64,000 bases of DNA, taken from positions 1,395,531 through 1,459,530 of the forward strand of contig NC_080695.1 in assembly GCF_030445035.2 (NCBI RefSeq), in the 5' to 3' direction. Source of the stretch: Dasypus novemcinctus (Eukaryota; Chordata; Mammalia; Cingulata; Dasypodidae). Made by a program: the position numbers and the translations under genes. How positions within the stretch are numbered: position 1 is the first letter of the stretch; every line of letters starts with the position of its first letter. Shown piece after piece: positions 1-53,395 of the stretch. The notes under the pieces are model-generated. The model saw nothing but the letters and a program-made list of their open reading frames with translations, did not search any database and was not told the origin of the DNA.

Positions 1-1037
1 ATCATCACCACCATCACCATCACCATCACCATCACCATCATCACCGCCATCACCATCGTCATCACCATCACCATCATCATCATCATCACCACCATCACCA
101 TCACCACCATCACCATCATCATCACCATCATCACTGTCATCACCATCACCACCATCATCACCATCATCACCATCACCACCATCACCATCACCATCATCAC
201 CACCATCATCATCACCACCATCATCATCACCACCATCATCATCACCATCATAATCACGTCACCATTGTCATCAACACCATCCCACCACCACCATCACCAT
301 CATCATCACCGTCATCACCATCGTCATCACCATCACCATCATCACCACCATCATCATCATCATCACCACCATCACCATCACCACCACCACCATCATCACC
401 ATCGTCATCACCACCACCATCACCATCACCATCATCACCATCATCACTGTCATCACCACCATCATCATCATCATCACCACCATCATCACCATCGTCATCA
501 CCACCACCATCATCACCATCATCACCATCATCACCATCACCATCATCATCACTGTCATCACCACCATCATCATCACCATCATAATCATGTCACCATTGTC
601 ATCAACACCATCCCACCACCATCATCACCATCATCACTGTCACCACCATCACCATCATCACCATCGTCATCACCATCACCATCATCATTGCCACCATTGT
701 CATCAACACCATCATCATCACCATAATCACCACCATCTCCATCATCACCGTCATCATCATCACCACCACCAGCATCACCATCACCATCATCACCATCATC
801 ACCATCATCACCATCACCACCATCATCATTGCCACCATCATCATCACCATCACCGTCATCATCACCACCATCGTCATCAACACCATCCCACCACCACCAT
901 CATCACCATCACCACCATCATCATCACCACCATCATCATCTTCACCACCACCAGCATCACCATCATCACCACCATCATCATCATCCTCACCATCTCTCAC
1001 CATCACCATCACCACCATCACCATCATCATCATCATT
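1..1037. repeat. Long CAT/CAC trinucleotide array
   Basis: About 1 kb of almost uninterrupted CAY triplets (CAT and CAC, with scattered CGT, TGT and AAT variants) that begins before the left edge. Longer blocks recur, for example the segment around 255-295 reappears near 585-615 and 870-900, so higher-order duplication has occurred on top of slippage. One frame reads as poly-histidine and others as poly-Ser/Pro or poly-Met/Val; this follows from the repeat and is not evidence of a gene. Confidence 0.97.
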
Positions 1038-17620: not shown

Positions 17621-17744
17621 TCCAAGGAGCTGCATGGTTGGGTTCGCTCCCTTGCTCCTCTCGACAGAAAAAAGTGTGAAGCCTCACAGTTCTATACAGC
17701 AAATCCACCCACTCTCTATCCTTCCTCCCTCCCTCTCTCCCTTC

Positions 17745-18440
17745 CTTCCCTCCACACACCCATCCAACCACCCATCCACCCTTTTGTCCACCCACCTATC
17801 CATCCATACATCCACCTACCCACCCATCCATCCACCCATCCACCCACGCATCCATTCATCCATCCTGCCATCCACCCACCCATCCATCTACCCATCCATC
17901 CATCCACCCATCCATTTACCCATCCACCCTTTCATCCATCCATCCAGCCATCCACCCATCCATCTATCCATCCACCCATCCATCCATCCACCCATCCATC
18001 CACCCATCCATCCATCCATCCATCCACCCATCCATTCACCCATCCACCCTTACATCCATCCAGCCATCCACCCATCCATCTATCCATCCACCCATCCATC
18101 CATCCATCCACCTTTACATCCATCCATCCATCCACCCATCCACCCTTTCATCCATCCATCCACCCATCCACCCTTTCATCCATCCAGCCAGCCATCCACC
18201 CATCCATCTGTCCATCCACCCATCCATCTATCCATCCACCTTTACATCCATCCATCCATCCACCCACCCATCCATCCACCCATCCATCCACCCACCCAAC
18301 CATCCATCCATCCACCCACCCATCCACCCATCCACCCTTACATCCATCCATCCATCCATCCACCCATCCATCCATCCATCCACCCATCCACCCATCCACC
18401 CTTTCATCTATCCATCCATCCATCCGCCCATCCTCTTTCC
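17745..18440. repeat. CATC/CACC tetranucleotide array
   Basis: About 700 bp of CATC and CACC tetramers with longer duplicated blocks (for example 'acccttacatccatcc' and 'accctttcatccatcc' segments). All three plus frames read as Ile-His-Pro-Ser repeats, so the open frames through it are artefacts. Confidence 0.96.
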
Positions 18441-28977: not shown

Positions 28978-29415
28978 AAAGATGGATGGATGGATGGATG
29001 GATGGGTGGATGTGTGGATGGATGGTTGAATGGGTGGGTGAATAGGTGGGTGAGTGGATGGGTGGATGGATGGCAGAGTGGATGGATGGATGGCAGGGTG
29101 GCAGGATGGATGGATGGATGGGTGGATAGGTGGGTGGGTGGGTAGATGGATGGCAGGGTGGGTGGATGGATGGCAGGATGGCAGGATGGGTGGGTGGGTG
29201 GGTGGGTGGATGGGCAGATGGATAGGTGGCAGGATGGACGGATGGATGGATGGATGGATAGGTGGCAGAATGGATGGATGGGTGGGTGGGTGAATGAGTG
29301 GATGGATGGATGGATGGATGGCAGGATGGATGTGTGGGTGGATGGGTGGATGGGTGGATGGATGGGTGGGTAGGTGGGTGCATGGATTGGGGATGTATGG
29401 ATGGGTGGGTGGAGG
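28978..29415. repeat. GATG/GGTG tetranucleotide array
   Basis: About 440 bp of GATG and GGTG tetramers with interspersed 'gcaggatggcagg' blocks. It is the reverse-complement type of the array at 17745-18440. Frames through it read Met-Asp-Gly-Trp repeats and are artefacts. Confidence 0.96.
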
Positions 29416-34459: not shown

Positions 34460-35761
34460 GAGGCCTGGTGGGTTTTCTTTTATTTTATCAGATCCATCTG
34501 TACAAAAGTTGCTTGGTCAGAAAGTAGCGAAACACAGCAGGTAAGTGACAGCCGAAGTCTTCCCGAGCTCAACGCAGAAAAACAGATTGCGTAAAAATGA
34601 GTTTGCTGTAGTTCCCTGCCCCCACCCCCAGAAAAAAAAAATACGCCAAAAACAAAGTTTTTAGAAAAAAGGTAGGAAAAAGTAGAAAAAGTAAAAAGGA
34701 GCCACTTCTCAAATGTGTTTCCATTTACAAAGGTTTAAAGGCACGCATTTCCACGAAGCAGCGGTTAGCACGCGCTCAGCACGCTGCCGGAACCACGCGG
34801 GACGTCGGGGCGTTCTCCTGCGGCTGAGGCTCTAAACACGGTTAGTGGGGACGGTCTAGTTTCACAGCGTGGTGGGTGACGCCAGGGTCCAAAGCCGAGG
34901 CCCACGTGTTCCCGTGGCCACCCGTCCTTCCTGGGAAACCCCACTGGGCATGGCCACCCGCCCCCGCCTTCCAAATTCCACCTGGCACCAGGTGCTGGGG
35001 CAGCCACGGAGCCCAGACGCGGTGTGACCCGCCCTCCGCCCGCCGAGCGGGAACCACGTGAGCGGCCAGGACCCCCCGCCCCGGGGGCCGCTCAGCAGCC
35101 GGGCTCTGCTCCGCCCGGGGGGCTCGGATCCCACCTGCACCTCTCGCTAAGCCTCCCGGGCTTGCACTTCGTTTTAAATTCTACCCTTCGCACAAATGAC
35201 TTCATTAATTAAAGATAAAATAAAACGGAACATAAATATGCTTCAACAGTTCCCAAGACACAAATCAACCACATTTAAGCTTCAGTAACAATAACGATAA
35301 CAATAATGATAAAGGAAGTGTTAATGTCGGCCAAAGCCTGCCTGGAAGAACCGACTACCAGGAGCCGCTCGGGTCTGCGGCGCCTCCCGAGAAGACCCGC
35401 GGGTGGAGCCTGCGGATAAGGGGGCACACCACCCACAGGGCCCAGCCACCCCGAAACCTCACGCCTCTTCCCTCCTTTCCTTCGTCCGAGGCTGCCGGTT
35501 TACGTTTACCGAGATGCAGAACCCACGTGCCGGCGTCCGCGAATCCTTCCAGAAAAGCGCGCAGGCAGCCGCCCTCCACCCCGGAACTGCCAGTCATCAC
35601 CAGCGGGAGAGAGAGGGCGGCAAGGGGGCTCGTCTGCGGGCGGGAGCCGGGGGGCCGGGGCGGTGGGGCGCGGTCCGGAGCAGCGAGCAGGCGGCGCTGC
35701 CGTCGAAAGACGGCCCCCTTGGCCGGGCCGGGGTCCGTGCGCCCCTCCTCCGCGGCGTCCC
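34460..35761 (-). other. SOX8 3' untranslated region with poly(A) signal
   Basis: The 1.3 kb that follows the SOX8 stop codon on the minus strand. It includes AT-rich islands (35150-35330 and 34480-34750) unlike the flanking GC-rich DNA. An AATAAA hexamer on the minus strand lies at 34484-34479, and a 3' end near 34460 is plausible. The length fits the long 3' UTR of mammalian SOX8. The end point is inferred from the hexamer, not from transcript data. Confidence 0.6.
34479..34484 (-). terminator. Poly(A) signal AATAAA for SOX8
   Basis: The minus-strand AATAAA sits inside 'ttttattttatcag' of the plus strand, at the low-coordinate edge of the AT-rich SOX8 3' UTR. It is the best canonical signal found downstream of the stop. 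Confidence 0.55.
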
Positions 35762-36426
35762 TCAGGGCCGGCTGAGGGTGGTGTACACGGGCGGGTCCCA
35801 GTTACTGGTGGGGCTGTGGGCCAGGCCGTTGAGCAGCGGCGCGGCGTAGGGGCGGCGGGACGAGTGGAAGTAAGGGTACTGGTAGAGGCCGGACGGGTAG
35901 CCGGGGTAGGGGCTGTAGTAGCCGGGGGACTGCAGGTCGCTATAGTCACACTGGGAGCCGGCGCAGGAGCCGGCGGCGGGGGCGGCCGCGGCCACGCAGG
36001 CCTGGGCGCTGTAGGCGCCGGGCGAGCCGTGCGGTCGGTCGCCGTAGTGGCCGGGGCTCAGCTGCTCCGTCTTGATGTGGGGCCGCGGGGGGCCCGCCTC
36101 GGGGGGCGAGGCCTTGTGGGCCCACCCGGGGTGGACGTAAGGGGCGCCGCTGTACGGGCCGCCGGCGGCCTGGCCGGGCTCGGCGGGCAGGGCCGCGTGG
36201 GCGCCGAGCGGCAGGTACTGGTCGAACTCGTGGACGTCGAAGGCGTCCATGCCCTCAACCACGTCGCTGCTCAGCTCCGAGATGTCCACGTTGCTGAAGT
36301 CGATGTTCTGGCGCCCGCCGTCGGCCGCGCGGCGCCCCTCCAGCTTCAGCTCCGGCTTGCTGCCGCCGCCGGGGAGCGGGTCGGTCTTGGGGGTGGTGGG
36401 CGGGGTGGGTGGCCCGTGGGTCTGCC
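35762..36426 (-). CDS. SOX8: SOX8 exon 3 (C-terminal coding exon)
   Basis: The acceptor is 'ctccccccccag' before GGCAGACCC. It enters in phase 1 (G|GG), giving [15 protein letters not shown], a stretch shared with human SOX8. It then encodes '[10 protein letters not shown]', '[14 protein letters not shown]', '[16 protein letters not shown]', '[16 protein letters not shown]' and the Tyr/Pro-rich transactivation tail '[16 protein letters not shown]', ending LSRP then TGA at 35764-35762. It is 665 nt and intact. The alanine-rich part around 35960-36030 differs most from human. Confidence 0.93.
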
Positions 36427-38363
36427 CTGGGGGGGAGGGGGAGAGCGCGCCAGGCATGAATGACCCCTGTGTGGGCCCGGGGAGGGCGCCGGCAGCCGCA
36501 GGTAGGATCAACGGCTTTTTGTTTCTTTCTGTTTCCCAGGCGTTCCTGCCAAGCCTCGCCCCCTGCCTGAGAAAACCCCGGAGAGTCCGTCCTAAGGGAG
36601 GCCCAGGACATGCGCGGAGACCACGGAGACCGCGGGGCGTGGGAAGAGGGCGGCCGCCCCCCGCGGAGCGCAGCCCCGTGGCTTCTGCCGGTGTGCCCGA
36701 GGCCGCTGGGCCGGCCGCGACGCCCCCAGGGCGGCCCGATTCTGAGACTGCCTGCTGACCGCCCCGCGGGCAGCTGTGCCACCCCACAAGGCCGACCGGG
36801 GGAGGGAGGGTCCCCGCGGGCGGGGTGCGGGACAAACAGCCCCAGCTGATCCCGCCGACGCCCCTGGTGGCTGCGCGGCCCCCGCCTCTCACCACCGTCA
36901 CCCGCTCAGCCGCAGGGCGCCCCTGCCCGGTGCGGGGGGAGGCCGTGCCCACCTGTGTGGTCACTGTGGTGGTGCATCCCGTCGCCGCCGGGGGTGGCGG
37001 CCCGGCTCGGTGCCCGCGTCCGCGTCGCCGTGGCCGGCCTTGGCGCCCTTCCTGCGGCGCGGCTGGTACTTGTAGTCGGGGTGCTCCTTCTTGTGCTGCA
37101 CGCGCAGGCGCTCCGCCTCCTCCACGAAGGGGCGCTTCTCGCTCTCGCTCAGCAAGCTGCGGAGCCGGGGGCCGGCGTCAGGGCGGCGCGGGGGGCCTGC
37201 GCCCCGGGGCACCCGCCACAGCCGCAGGAACCCCAACGCCGGCCGGCCGTCGGCACGCCTGGGGCCGGGGGAGACCGGCCCTCTCCAGGCCGCGCCGGCC
37301 GCTGTGGGCGGGGGCGGCCGCAGCCCCGCAGCAGGCCCCCAAGCCCCGCTCCCTCTTCCCCCTTCTACTTCCCGGCCGGTCCCCTCCCTTTGGGGCTTTC
37401 TACAGGAGCAGCGGAAAAAGCAGCACAAACGTGGCGCCGGCCCCCCCAGCAGGCTTCTGGGGGCGGCCTCCACGGGCTGCGCGCACAGCCTGGCCCTCCC
37501 GCAGCTCCCCCCCGCCCGGCCCTAGAGCGGCGCCCGCTGCCGGACCCCCGAGCGCGCAGGAGACAAAAACAGAGGGCGTGCCTGCTCAAGCAGGGACCCT
37601 GCACCCTGGACCCCAAGTACCCACTTGAGGGCCAGAGAGGGCATGGGGACGCTCGTCGGCCGCAGCGGCAGAGCCACTGCCCGAGAGCCCTGCCTTCCGC
37701 CTCTGAAGGACAGACCTTCGCCAGGCCAAAGGGACCTTCAGGGCACAGCCGGCTCACCCCACTCCTTCCTCCCCGGTGGGGGGCACGGAAGCAGCAGGGG
37801 AGGAGGAGAACCGAGGGGGACGCTGCCAGCAGGCGGATGCCGCCCCTCACATGCCTCCCCCGTCCGCGTGGGGAGCCGCAGCCCGGCGCTTGGCAGAGCG
37901 CGGCCCTGGGTCCCCACGAGGCGCGGCGCCCGCCTCCCCGCCGCGCCGCGCCCGCTCACCGCCACAGCTTGCCCAGCGTCTTGCTGAGCTCGGCGTTGTG
38001 CAGGTGCGGGTACTGGTCCGCCAGCTTGCGGCGCGCCGCCTGCGCCCACACCATGAAGGCGTTCATCGGCCGCTTCACGTGCGGCTTGGCCTTGAGCGCG
38101 CCGCCGCCGCGCACCGGCAGGGGCACCAGGCTCCAGTCGTAGCCCTTGAGCACCTGCGACACGGCGTCGCGGATGCAGGCGGGGAAGCGCTCGTCCGCCG
38201 CCGCCGCCGCCGCCTCGGCCCGGCCGGCCCCCGCCGCGCGGCCCGCGCCCTCGGAGCCGGCGGGCGACGGCGGCGCGTCCGAGTCCGAGTCGTCCACGTG
38301 CGACATGGAGCTGGCGGGGCCCGACGGGCTGCAGGGCGCGCGCGCCTCGCTCATGTCCAGCAT
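35762..38363 (-). CDS. SOX8: SRY-box transcription factor 8 (three exons, frame broken in exon 2)
   Basis: SOXE-group HMG-box transcription factor acting in neural crest, glia, Sertoli cells and limb. Exons are 38363-37960, 37156-36953 and 36426-35762, with GT-AG introns of 803 and 526 bp at the two positions typical of SOXE genes, the first splitting the HMG box. Domains in order: acidic/Ser N terminus; DNA-dependent dimerisation segment (about residues 57-84); HMG box (about 95-170); central region with '[14 protein letters not shown]' in exon 3; C-terminal transactivation domain ending VYTTLSRP. Identity is clear from near-complete agreement with human SOX8 through the dimerisation and HMG segments. 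The start is the ATG at 38363 (MLDMSEA), as in human; its Kozak context is weak. The exon lengths sum to 1273 nt, not a multiple of three, and exon 2 reaches a stop after about 199 residues. A sequencing or assembly indel is the likeliest cause. Confidence 0.95.
36953..37156 (-). CDS. SOX8: SOX8 exon 2 (second half of the HMG box, frameshifted)
   Basis: The acceptor 'ggctccgcag' and donor GTGGGC bound a 204-nt exon. It completes the split Arg and encodes [19 protein letters not shown] through YKYQPRRRK and [15 protein letters not shown]. From about 37000 downward the frame gives an Arg/Pro-rich tail and TGA at 36963-36961. The other frame yields [12 protein letters not shown], which matches the human GDGHHHGDHTG and joins exon 3 in phase. 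So the exon is one base too long (or two short), and the linker between is shorter than in human. Confidence 0.9.
37960..38363 (-). CDS. SOX8: SOX8 exon 1 (dimerisation domain and first half of the HMG box)
   Basis: A 404-nt coding part from ATG to the donor 'tggcg|gtgagc', ending in phase 2 inside the Arg of GKLWR. It encodes MLDMSEA, the acidic '[19 protein letters not shown]', an alanine-rich stretch, '[20 protein letters not shown]' (SOXE dimerisation) and '[20 protein letters not shown]' (HMG box start). The frame stays open upstream of the ATG, but only to non-ATG codons, so the ATG at 38363 is the first usable one. Confidence 0.95.
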
Positions 38364-48030: not shown

Positions 48031-48223
48031 ATGCGTTGTAACGGCCAGGCAATGGCGGCGCCCGAGGAGGCGCTGAGGCAGCGGAGGCGCGGGGATGCAG
48101 CCCCTGAGACTGGGTCTCCGCCCGCGCCTCCGCGCGGGCCCGCGGGCCGCCCGGGCCGCCTCCGCGCGGGCACGTTCTGGCTGACCAGGATAGCGCTCCT
48201 GAGGGCGCTGGCGTTCGTTTACT
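48031..48223 (+). CDS. LMF1: Lipase maturation factor 1, exon 1
   Basis: LMF1 is a multi-pass endoplasmic reticulum membrane protein needed to fold lipoprotein, hepatic and endothelial lipases. This exon encodes MRCNGQAMAAPEEALRQRRR, the linker SPPAPPRGPAG, and GTFWLTRIALLRALAFVY, the start of the first membrane segment, matching human LMF1. The ATG at 48031 gives the same seven-residue extension as the human start. The second ATG (48052) has a stronger context (GCAATGG) and may be the main initiator. The exon ends in phase 1 at 'tact|gtgagt'. The gene is divergent from SOX8 as in human. Confidence 0.93.
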
Positions 48224-52529: not shown

Positions 52530-53395
52530 CTAGGGTGGCAGATGCTCGTGGGAGCCGGTTGCCTGGGGGGCTGGTCACCCAGGATGCTGGATGGCCTGGG
52601 GTGCCAGGTGGCCTTTGGGTGCTGGACACCTAGGGTGCTGAACACCTGGGGTGCTTGGTGGCCTACGGGTGCTGGGGGCCTGGGGTGCCAGGTGGTCTGG
52701 GGTGCTGGACGCCTGGGGTGCCAGGTGGTCTGGGGTGCTGGACGCCTGGGGCGCTGGGTGGTCTGGGGTGCTGGACGCCCAGGGTGCTGGCTGGCCTGGG
52801 GTGCTGGCTGGCCTGTGGGGTGCTGGCCGCCCTGAGGTGCTGGTCACCGGGGATGCTGTGTAGCCTGGGGTGCTGGACACCTGGCATGCTGGGTGGCCTG
52901 AGGTGCTGGACACCTGGGGTGCTGGCTGGCCTGTGGGTGCTGGCCGCCCTGAGGTGCTGGTCACCGGGGATGCTGTGTAGCCTGGGGTGCTGGACACCTG
53001 GCGTGCTGGGTGGCCTGAGGTGCTGGACACCTGGCGTGCTGGCTGGCCTGTGGGTGCTGGTCGCTGGGAATGCTGGCTGGCCTGTGGGTGCTGGTTGCTG
53101 GGGATGCTGTGTAGCCTGGGGTGCTGGACACCTGGCGTGCTGGGTGGCCTGAGGTGCTGGACACCTGGGGTGCTGGCTGGCCTGTGGGTGCTGGTCGCTG
53201 GGAATGCTGGCTGGCCTGTGGGTGCTGGTTGCTGGGGATGCTGTGTAGCCTGGGGTGCTGGACACCTGGCGTGCTGGGTGGCCTGGGGTGCTGGTGACCT
53301 GTGGGTGCTGGACGCTCTGTGGTGCTGAACACCTGGGGTGCTGGGGGGCCCGTGGGTGCTGGTCGCTGGGGGTGCTGGGTGCTGTGGCCCTTGTC
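52530..53395. repeat. Minisatellite of 'ggggtgctggacacctg' units in LMF1 intron 1
   Basis: About 860 bp of degenerate units of roughly 16-18 bp (GGGGTGCTGGACACCTG, GGGGTGCTGGCTGGCCTG and variants). They are grouped into longer higher-order blocks, for example the 130-140 bp block near 52855-52990 recurs around 53100-53250. G-rich on the plus strand. Open frames through it are artefacts. Confidence 0.95.

What the first reader, a model, noticed from the sequence alone, without database searches (positions are those of the whole stretch)
36953..37156. SOX8 exon 2 is out of frame with exon 3
Seen: between clear splice sites exon 2 is 204 nt, entering in phase 2 and leaving in phase 2, whereas exon 3 needs phase 1. 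The SOX frame hits TGA at 36963-36961, just after the HMG box. The adjacent frame carries the conserved [12 protein letters not shown] end. As written, the protein would lose its whole transactivation domain. Exons 1 and 3 are intact, so a sequencing or assembly indel in this GC-rich stretch (36964-37002) is likelier than gene death, but a real lesion is possible.
Basis: partly seen in the sequence, partly recalled or inferred. Interest (0 to 1): 0.75.

Follow-up and report, generated by a model that had tools for sequence, protein, structure and literature searches.

The report
Frame break in mammalian SOX8 exon
In this mammalian genome assembly the developmental gene SOX8 is written out of frame in its second exon, most likely a one-letter assembly slip on top of a harmless ten-codon shortening, though a real truncating mutation cannot be ruled out without the raw reads.

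Summary
SOX8 is on the minus strand: exons 38363-37960 (404 nt), 37156-36953 (204) and 36426-35762 (665); the CDS is 1 modulo 3 and the SOX frame meets TGA at 36963-36961. SOX10 exon 2 in the same genome is 269 nt and keeps phase. Codon composition places the frame switch at 37006-36987 (gain 20.75 nats; highest of 220 overlapping control windows 5.09). New: against published human anchors the exon 2 interval is 29 nt shorter, while the other three differ by -18, +3 and -24 nt, all in frame. So it is either one 29-nt deletion, or an in-frame 30-nt loss plus one extra base, perhaps in the C5 run 36994-36990. No strong splice rescue was found, nor a second copy in the assembly. If real, the stop lies 8 nt before the last coding junction, so decay should be escaped and a 199-aa DNA-binding protein without activation domains made. 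I favour a consensus error (0.5) over a real allele (0.38). Reads would decide; I had none.

The parts
37960..38363 (-). SOX8 coding exon 1 (404 nt; Sox_N dimerization region and first half of HMG box)
36953..37156 (-). SOX8 exon 2 (204 nt, 0 mod 3; rest of HMG box, linker with the frame break)
36987..37006 (-). Interval in which the coding frame switches from the SOX frame to the +1 frame
   Evidence: positions within 1 nat of the maximum; controls
36990..36994 (-). C5 run inside the switch interval, candidate site of a one-base frame error
   Evidence: sequence; its role is inference
36961..36963 (-). TGA stop in the SOX frame; 8 nt of exon 2 follow it
35762..36426 (-). SOX8 coding exon 3 (665 nt, open in the phase-1 frame; holds EFDQYL and the stretch expected to bear both transactivation domains)
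34479..34484 (-). AATAAA poly(A) signal downstream of SOX8, the only one in 35761-34000 on this strand

Best explanation
The SOX8 of this animal is most likely a working, full-length gene whose HMG-to-TAM linker is about ten codons shorter than in human, in frame, as the N terminus and exon 3 also differ in length in frame; the reference sequence carries one base too many for the frame within 37006-36987, most simply a consensus error at the C5 run. Shown: the frame break, its place, the net -29 nt against human anchors, and the in-frame differences elsewhere. Inferred: that the one-base part is technical, and that the other 30 nt are an older in-frame difference.
For: Three of the four anchor intervals differ from human by multiples of three (-18, +3, -24 nt); only R159-Q220 does not (-29) (human anchors from passages of PMC9859272). 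No stop or frame break in exons 1 and 3. 78 of 81 aligned residues around the HMG box match the solved SOX9; printed human exon 3 segments match at 14 of 15 and 18 of 22 residues. Frameshift errors are reported for 2.2% of BUSCO genes in VGP assemblies and 4.9% in other genomes (PMC13320880, passage), and false indels in GC-rich coding sequence for older assemblies (PMC9516821, passages). A stable truncated SOXE protein would be expected to harm (SOX10 precedent, PMC6404762, passages).
Against: No reads were seen. A run of only five C is not a typical place for a long-read consensus error (general knowledge). The reading needs two events where one 29-nt deletion would do. PMC9516821 reports false indels for earlier assemblies and says that long-read VGP assemblies recovered such GC-rich regions. 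Which assembly and technology this is was not established.
Confidence: 0.5

Rival explanations
1. A real frameshift, either one 29-nt deletion or a one-base indel after an in-frame loss, fixed in this species or carried by the sequenced haplotype. The TGA lies 8 nt before the last coding junction, so the mRNA should escape nonsense-mediated decay and give a 199-aa protein with dimerization region and HMG box but no TAM or TAC, tolerated because SOX9 and SOX10 cover for SOX8.
For: The sequence as it stands. A single 29-nt deletion explains the length difference in one step. The Y-K-S stretch of SOX10 exon 2 (AHYKSA) has no counterpart of the form [FY]K[ASR] in SOX8 exon 2 in any of three frames. 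[quoted passage not shown] human SOX8 ranks as variation-tolerant (RVIS 76.58%, PMC9859272, passage). Two inverted repeats lie near, one pair (36983-36991 and 37051-37059) reaching into the switch interval.
Against: No second lesion in exons 1 or 3. The HMG box is nearly unchanged: under assumed neutral rates of 1.5-3e-9, and counting one unusual residue, a functionless gene would be at most roughly 10-20 million years old; that bound fails if the truncated protein keeps a use. A stable SOXE protein with HMG box but without transactivation domain is expected to be dominant-negative (SOX10 precedent). No direct repeats that would mediate a deletion were found in 36930-37060.
Confidence: 0.38
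2. The frame is restored in the mRNA by alternative splicing.
For: On paper many choices work: 346 of the pairs formed by 115 GT/GC donors and 32 AG acceptors reopen the frame to the normal end. Among 20 GT donors downstream of the HMG box one, ACA|GTGACC at 36964, can do so, with 10 acceptors, among them TCTCAG|GCAG at 36566 giving 466 aa. A GC donor at 37028 joined to the normal exon 3 acceptor gives 398 aa with the box kept.
Against: All donors are weak: the best of the 346 pairs scores 1.06 (a GC donor inside the box) and the GC donor at 37028 scores 0.86, against 4.67 for the normal donor; only the top 25 pairs were printed and the 36964 donor is not among them, so it scores no more than 0.59. 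The 15 alternative acceptors of exon 2 that restore frame all cut into exon 2, and skipping exon 2 does not restore it.
Confidence: 0.07
3. Programmed +1 ribosomal frameshifting at or before the TGA (CAG-TGA-C) leads into exon 3, in the manner of antizyme.
For: The needed shift is +1, and reading GAC after CAG would continue as DHTG into exon 3 (frames). The antizyme analogy is recalled.
Against: No precedent in SOX genes known to me; SOX10 exon 2 in the same genome does not need it. The region's single-strand fold is unremarkable (z -1.27, 19 of 200 shuffles as stable; DNA parameters, not a pseudoknot test).
Confidence: 0.01

Closest known systems
SOX8 (SOXE group), human
   Same: Sox_N, HMG box, EFDQYL motif, printed segments matched at 14 of 15 and 18 of 22 residues; three coding exons as stated for SoxE genes
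   Different: R159-Q220 interval 29 nt shorter by published anchors, which breaks the frame
SOX10 of the same genome (L030; name by recall and synteny not tested)
   Same: Exon 2 begins in phase 2 and holds the second half of the HMG box
   Different: 269 nt, leaves in phase 1, has AHYKSA in the linker
Truncating SOX10 mutations that escape decay (PCWH type)
   Same: Predicted HMG-bearing protein without transactivation domains, stop beyond the decay boundary (rule)
   Different: Here it is a SOX8 reference sequence, not a patient allele, and may be an assembly error
False indels and false gene losses in GC-rich exons of assemblies (PMC9516821)
   Same: Frame-breaking difference in a GC-rich coding stretch, rest of the gene intact
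   Different: Those were described in earlier Sanger- and Illumina-based assemblies; this assembly's technology is unknown

Membership tests
SOX8 orthologue (SOXE) | Sox_N and HMG box above cut-off | tested here: met
   Pfam Sox_N 89.4 bits (cut-off 23.1), HMG_box 93.9 bits (cut-off 25.4)
SOX8 orthologue (SOXE) | EFDQYL motif (SoxE and SoxF, PMC9602320 passage) and SOX8-type exon 3 segments | tested here: met
   EFDQYL present; 14 of 15 and 18 of 22 residues of printed human segments
SOX8 orthologue (SOXE) | Next to LMF1, head to head (arrangement in human recalled) | tested here: met
   4 of 7 LMF1-family hits lie on the + strand at C37:1499592-1543607, 40-84 kb beyond the window end; the other 3 are on C18; LMF1-like first exon at window 48052 by recall
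SOX8 orthologue (SOXE) | Exon 2 of length 2 mod 3, giving phase 2 in and phase 1 out | tested here: not met
   204 nt, 0 mod 3; SOX10 control 269 nt, 2 mod 3. SOX9 exon 2 could not be read (withheld stretches)
Unitary pseudogene | Several inactivating lesions or relaxed constraint across exons | tested here: inconclusive
   One lesion only; exons 1 and 3 open. Relaxed constraint was not measured, for want of relatives
Assembly frameshift error | Raw reads disagree with the consensus at the site | not testable with these tools
   No reads available; no second copy found in the assembly

The most novel reading that the evidence does not exclude
The lineage has a fixed, stable, truncated SOX8 (199 aa) that keeps dimerization region and HMG box and has shed both transactivation domains, surviving decay because the stop falls 8 nt before the last coding junction, and so working as a natural antagonist of SOX9 and SOX10 at shared sites.
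Probability: 0.06. Interest if true: 0.65.

Novelty: new member of a known kind. Interest (0 to 1): 0.25.

Why it matters
If technical, it is a frame error in a reference genome that would make an annotator call SOX8 broken. If real, it would be a natural truncation of a SOXE factor of the type described as dominant-negative for human SOX10, tolerated in a mammal, and would test how far SOX9 and SOX10 cover for SOX8. The measured -29 nt tells the checker to look for a length variant of about 30 nt and not only for one base.

Tried and rejected
Splice rescue: all GT/GC donors and AG acceptors in the stretch (346 of the pairs from 115 donors and 32 acceptors reopen the frame; 25 printed), then only GT donors downstream of the HMG box (10 pairs, one donor of 20); judged unlikely because the donors are weak. 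Second haplotype or duplicate: exon 3 protein (24 of 24 candidates scored, 3 matches: the own place and two pieces of a SOX9-like gene), 301-nt DNA (7 of 7 scored, 7 matches, only the own place identical, the others 74-89% over parts), exon 2 protein (14 of 14 scored, 8 matches, only the own place identical). These searches are not exhaustive: where 150 of 214 candidates were scored, the window's own SOX8 box halves are not among the matches listed. SOX9 exon 2 as a second control: withheld stretches prevented it, so only SOX10 exon 2 and the SOX9 exon 3 start were used. First guesses for SOXE loci (L009, L010, L011) were not SOXE; L009 and L010 look like SOX17 and SOX7 by recall. Repeats in 36930-37060: 0 direct families, 2 inverted pairs. 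Single-strand DNA fold unremarkable. Literature, seen as search listings with starts of abstracts: (14 of 14 listed; 20 of 1,166; 2 of 2; 15 of 17; 6 of 121) show no title on SOX8 loss in armadillo or other mammals; the library is open-access only. Haseeb and Lefebvre 2019 is not held. PMC13060356 (passages) names an armadillo assembly but I could not tie the window to it. The human anchors rest on passages of one paper (PMC9859272). The age bound uses assumed neutral rates and counts one of the three residues that differ from SOX9 (D to E); the other two (A for N, S for N) I left out as SOX8-typical, by recall.

Full report
What was checked. The window's minus strand holds a SOX8 gene: coding exon 1 at 38363-37960 (404 nt), exon 2 at 37156-36953 (204 nt) and exon 3 at 36426-35762 (665 nt). 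The boundaries are TGTGGCG|GTGAGC, CCGCAG|CTTGCT, ACACAG|GTGGGC and CCCCAG|GGCAGA. Exon 1 plus the SOX frame of exon 2 match Pfam Sox_N (89.4 bits) and HMG_box (93.9 bits), and 78 of 81 residues around the box match the solved SOX9 (alignment; the three differences are A for N, S for N, E for D). Exon 3 holds EFDQYL and ends in YTTLSRP; exon 3 alone matched no Pfam family. The spliced CDS is 1273 nt, 1 modulo 3, and the SOX frame reaches TGA at 36963-36961 after the tail [12 protein letters not shown]. The +1 frame of the same stretch reads [11 protein letters not shown] and runs in phase into exon 3.

Is it more than chance? Third codon positions are 100% and 96% GC in exons 1 and 3. A codon-position model trained on those exons prefers the SOX frame up to about 37006 and the +1 frame after about 36987; the gain from one switch is 20.75 nats. 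The same test on 220 overlapping windows of 204 nt from exons 1 and 3, each scored with the other exon's model, gave at most 5.09 (exon 2 with those models: 22.48 and 19.0), and SOX10 exon 2 of the same genome gave 3.17. SOX10 exon 2 is 269 nt (2 mod 3) and leaves in phase 1, as SOX8 exon 3 requires; the SOX9 exon 3 start has the same phase. SOX9 exon 2 could not be read because parts of that locus are withheld. This composition test dates nothing: it shows which frame the stretch evolved in, not when the frame broke.

Size of the lesion. A paper seen in passages (PMC9859272) gives human SOX8 as 446 aa, with R159 and K163 in the HMG box (so R159 is taken as the R of RVQHK), residue 220 starting [15 protein letters not shown] and residue 255 starting [22 protein letters not shown]. 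Measured between those anchors, this gene differs from human by -18 nt (start to R159), -29 nt (R159 to Q220), +3 nt (Q220 to G255) and -24 nt (G255 to the end). Three of four intervals differ by whole codons; only the exon 2 interval does not. Human exon 2 length is implied as 233 nt if both splice sites are conserved (an inference). So the account of one extra or missing base is incomplete: either one 29-nt deletion removed part of the linker between HMG box and TAM, or an in-frame 30-nt difference was followed by one extra base, in the genome or in the assembly. The linker also has no [FY]K[ASR] stretch in any of three frames, whereas SOX10 exon 2 carries AHYKSA; that human SOX8 has a similar motif there is my recall, not tested. 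No other mammal's SOX8 was available, so whether human or this genome changed is not known.

Can the cell get round it? On paper, 346 of the pairs formed by 115 GT/GC donors and 32 AG acceptors reopen the frame, but the best donor among them scores 1.06 against 4.67 for the normal donor. Of 20 GT donors downstream of the HMG box only ACA|GTGACC at 36964 can reopen the frame, with 10 acceptors; it is not among the 25 pairs printed, the lowest of which scores 0.59. A GC donor at 37028 (0.86) joined to the normal exon 3 acceptor would give 398 aa with the box kept. Skipping exon 2 does not restore frame. Splicing rescue is possible but unlikely. A +1 ribosomal shift at CAG-TGA-C would also work on paper; nothing supports it.

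What would the product be? Eight nt of exon 2 follow the stop. SoxE genes have three coding exons and two introns (PMC11849977, passage), so this is the last coding junction; stops closer than 50-55 nt to the last junction generally escape nonsense-mediated decay (rule inferred from the boundary stated in PMC6404762, passage). Predicted product: 199 aa with dimerization region and HMG box, without TAM and TAC. For SOX10, truncations that keep the HMG box, lose the transactivation domain and escape decay are described as dominant-negative (PMC6404762). [quoted passage not shown]

Error or allele? For error: a single lesion in an otherwise open gene; a GC-rich stretch with a C5 run; reported frameshift errors in 2.2% of BUSCO genes of VGP assemblies and 4.9% in other genomes (PMC13320880, passage); false indels in GC-rich exons of older assemblies (PMC9516821, passages). 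Against error: no reads were available, a five-base run is not a classic long-read error site (general knowledge), the same papers stress the accuracy of long-read assemblies, and one 29-nt deletion is the one-step account. No second copy was found, so the other haplotype could not be compared (these searches can miss, since one search did not list the window's own box halves). Under assumed neutral rates the near-unchanged HMG box puts a functionless gene at no more than roughly 10-20 million years (one unusual residue counted), which speaks against an ancient dead gene but not against a recent or polymorphic lesion. I put consensus error on top of in-frame shortening at 0.5, a real allele at 0.38, splice rescue at 0.07 and recoding at 0.01; these weights are judgement, not calculation.

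Setting. The genome is 3.61 Gb in 546 contigs. Four of 7 LMF1-family hits lie on the same contig, 40-84 kb beyond the window on the + strand; the other 3 are on another contig. An LMF1-like first exon (by recall) starts at 48052, head to head with SOX8. This supports orthology.

Verdict. The frame break is really in the sequence and well localised. Its cause is undecided without reads; it is most likely ordinary. The useful additions are the net -29 nt against human with in-frame differences elsewhere, the predicted escape from decay, and the lack of a strong splice rescue.

Noticed in passing
window 1-1036: ATC/ACC-rich tandem repeat (units 9, 15, 18 nt); the 279-aa open frame at 254-1093 is made of it for the most part.
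   Followed up: no
window 17703-18433 and 28981-29413: CCATCCATCCACC-type array (units 20, 24, 28, 64 nt) and, about 10.5 kb on, a GGATGGATGGGTG array of the complementary type (units 20, 24 nt); long open frames there are repeat-driven.
   Followed up: no
window 52557-53378: GGTGCTGG-type minisatellite with units of 33 to 134 nt, the 134-nt unit 90% alike.
   Followed up: no
window 48052 onward, + strand: LMF1-like first coding exon (starts MAAPEEALRQRRRGDAAPETG), open, in a GC-rich stretch; identity by recall; no PF06762 hit is listed inside the window.
   Followed up: partly
window 35762-37177, - strand: A 471-codon stop-to-stop frame runs from exon 2 (third frame) through intron 2 into the true exon 3 frame; intron 2 is open in that frame, probably by high GC.
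   Followed up: partly
G000:C48:12418911-12419117 and G000:C49:1819132-1819338: Two HMG-box loci on different contigs with equal scores (94.9 bits) and equal 254-aa frames, possibly a duplicate or two copies of one SOX gene in the assembly.
   Followed up: no
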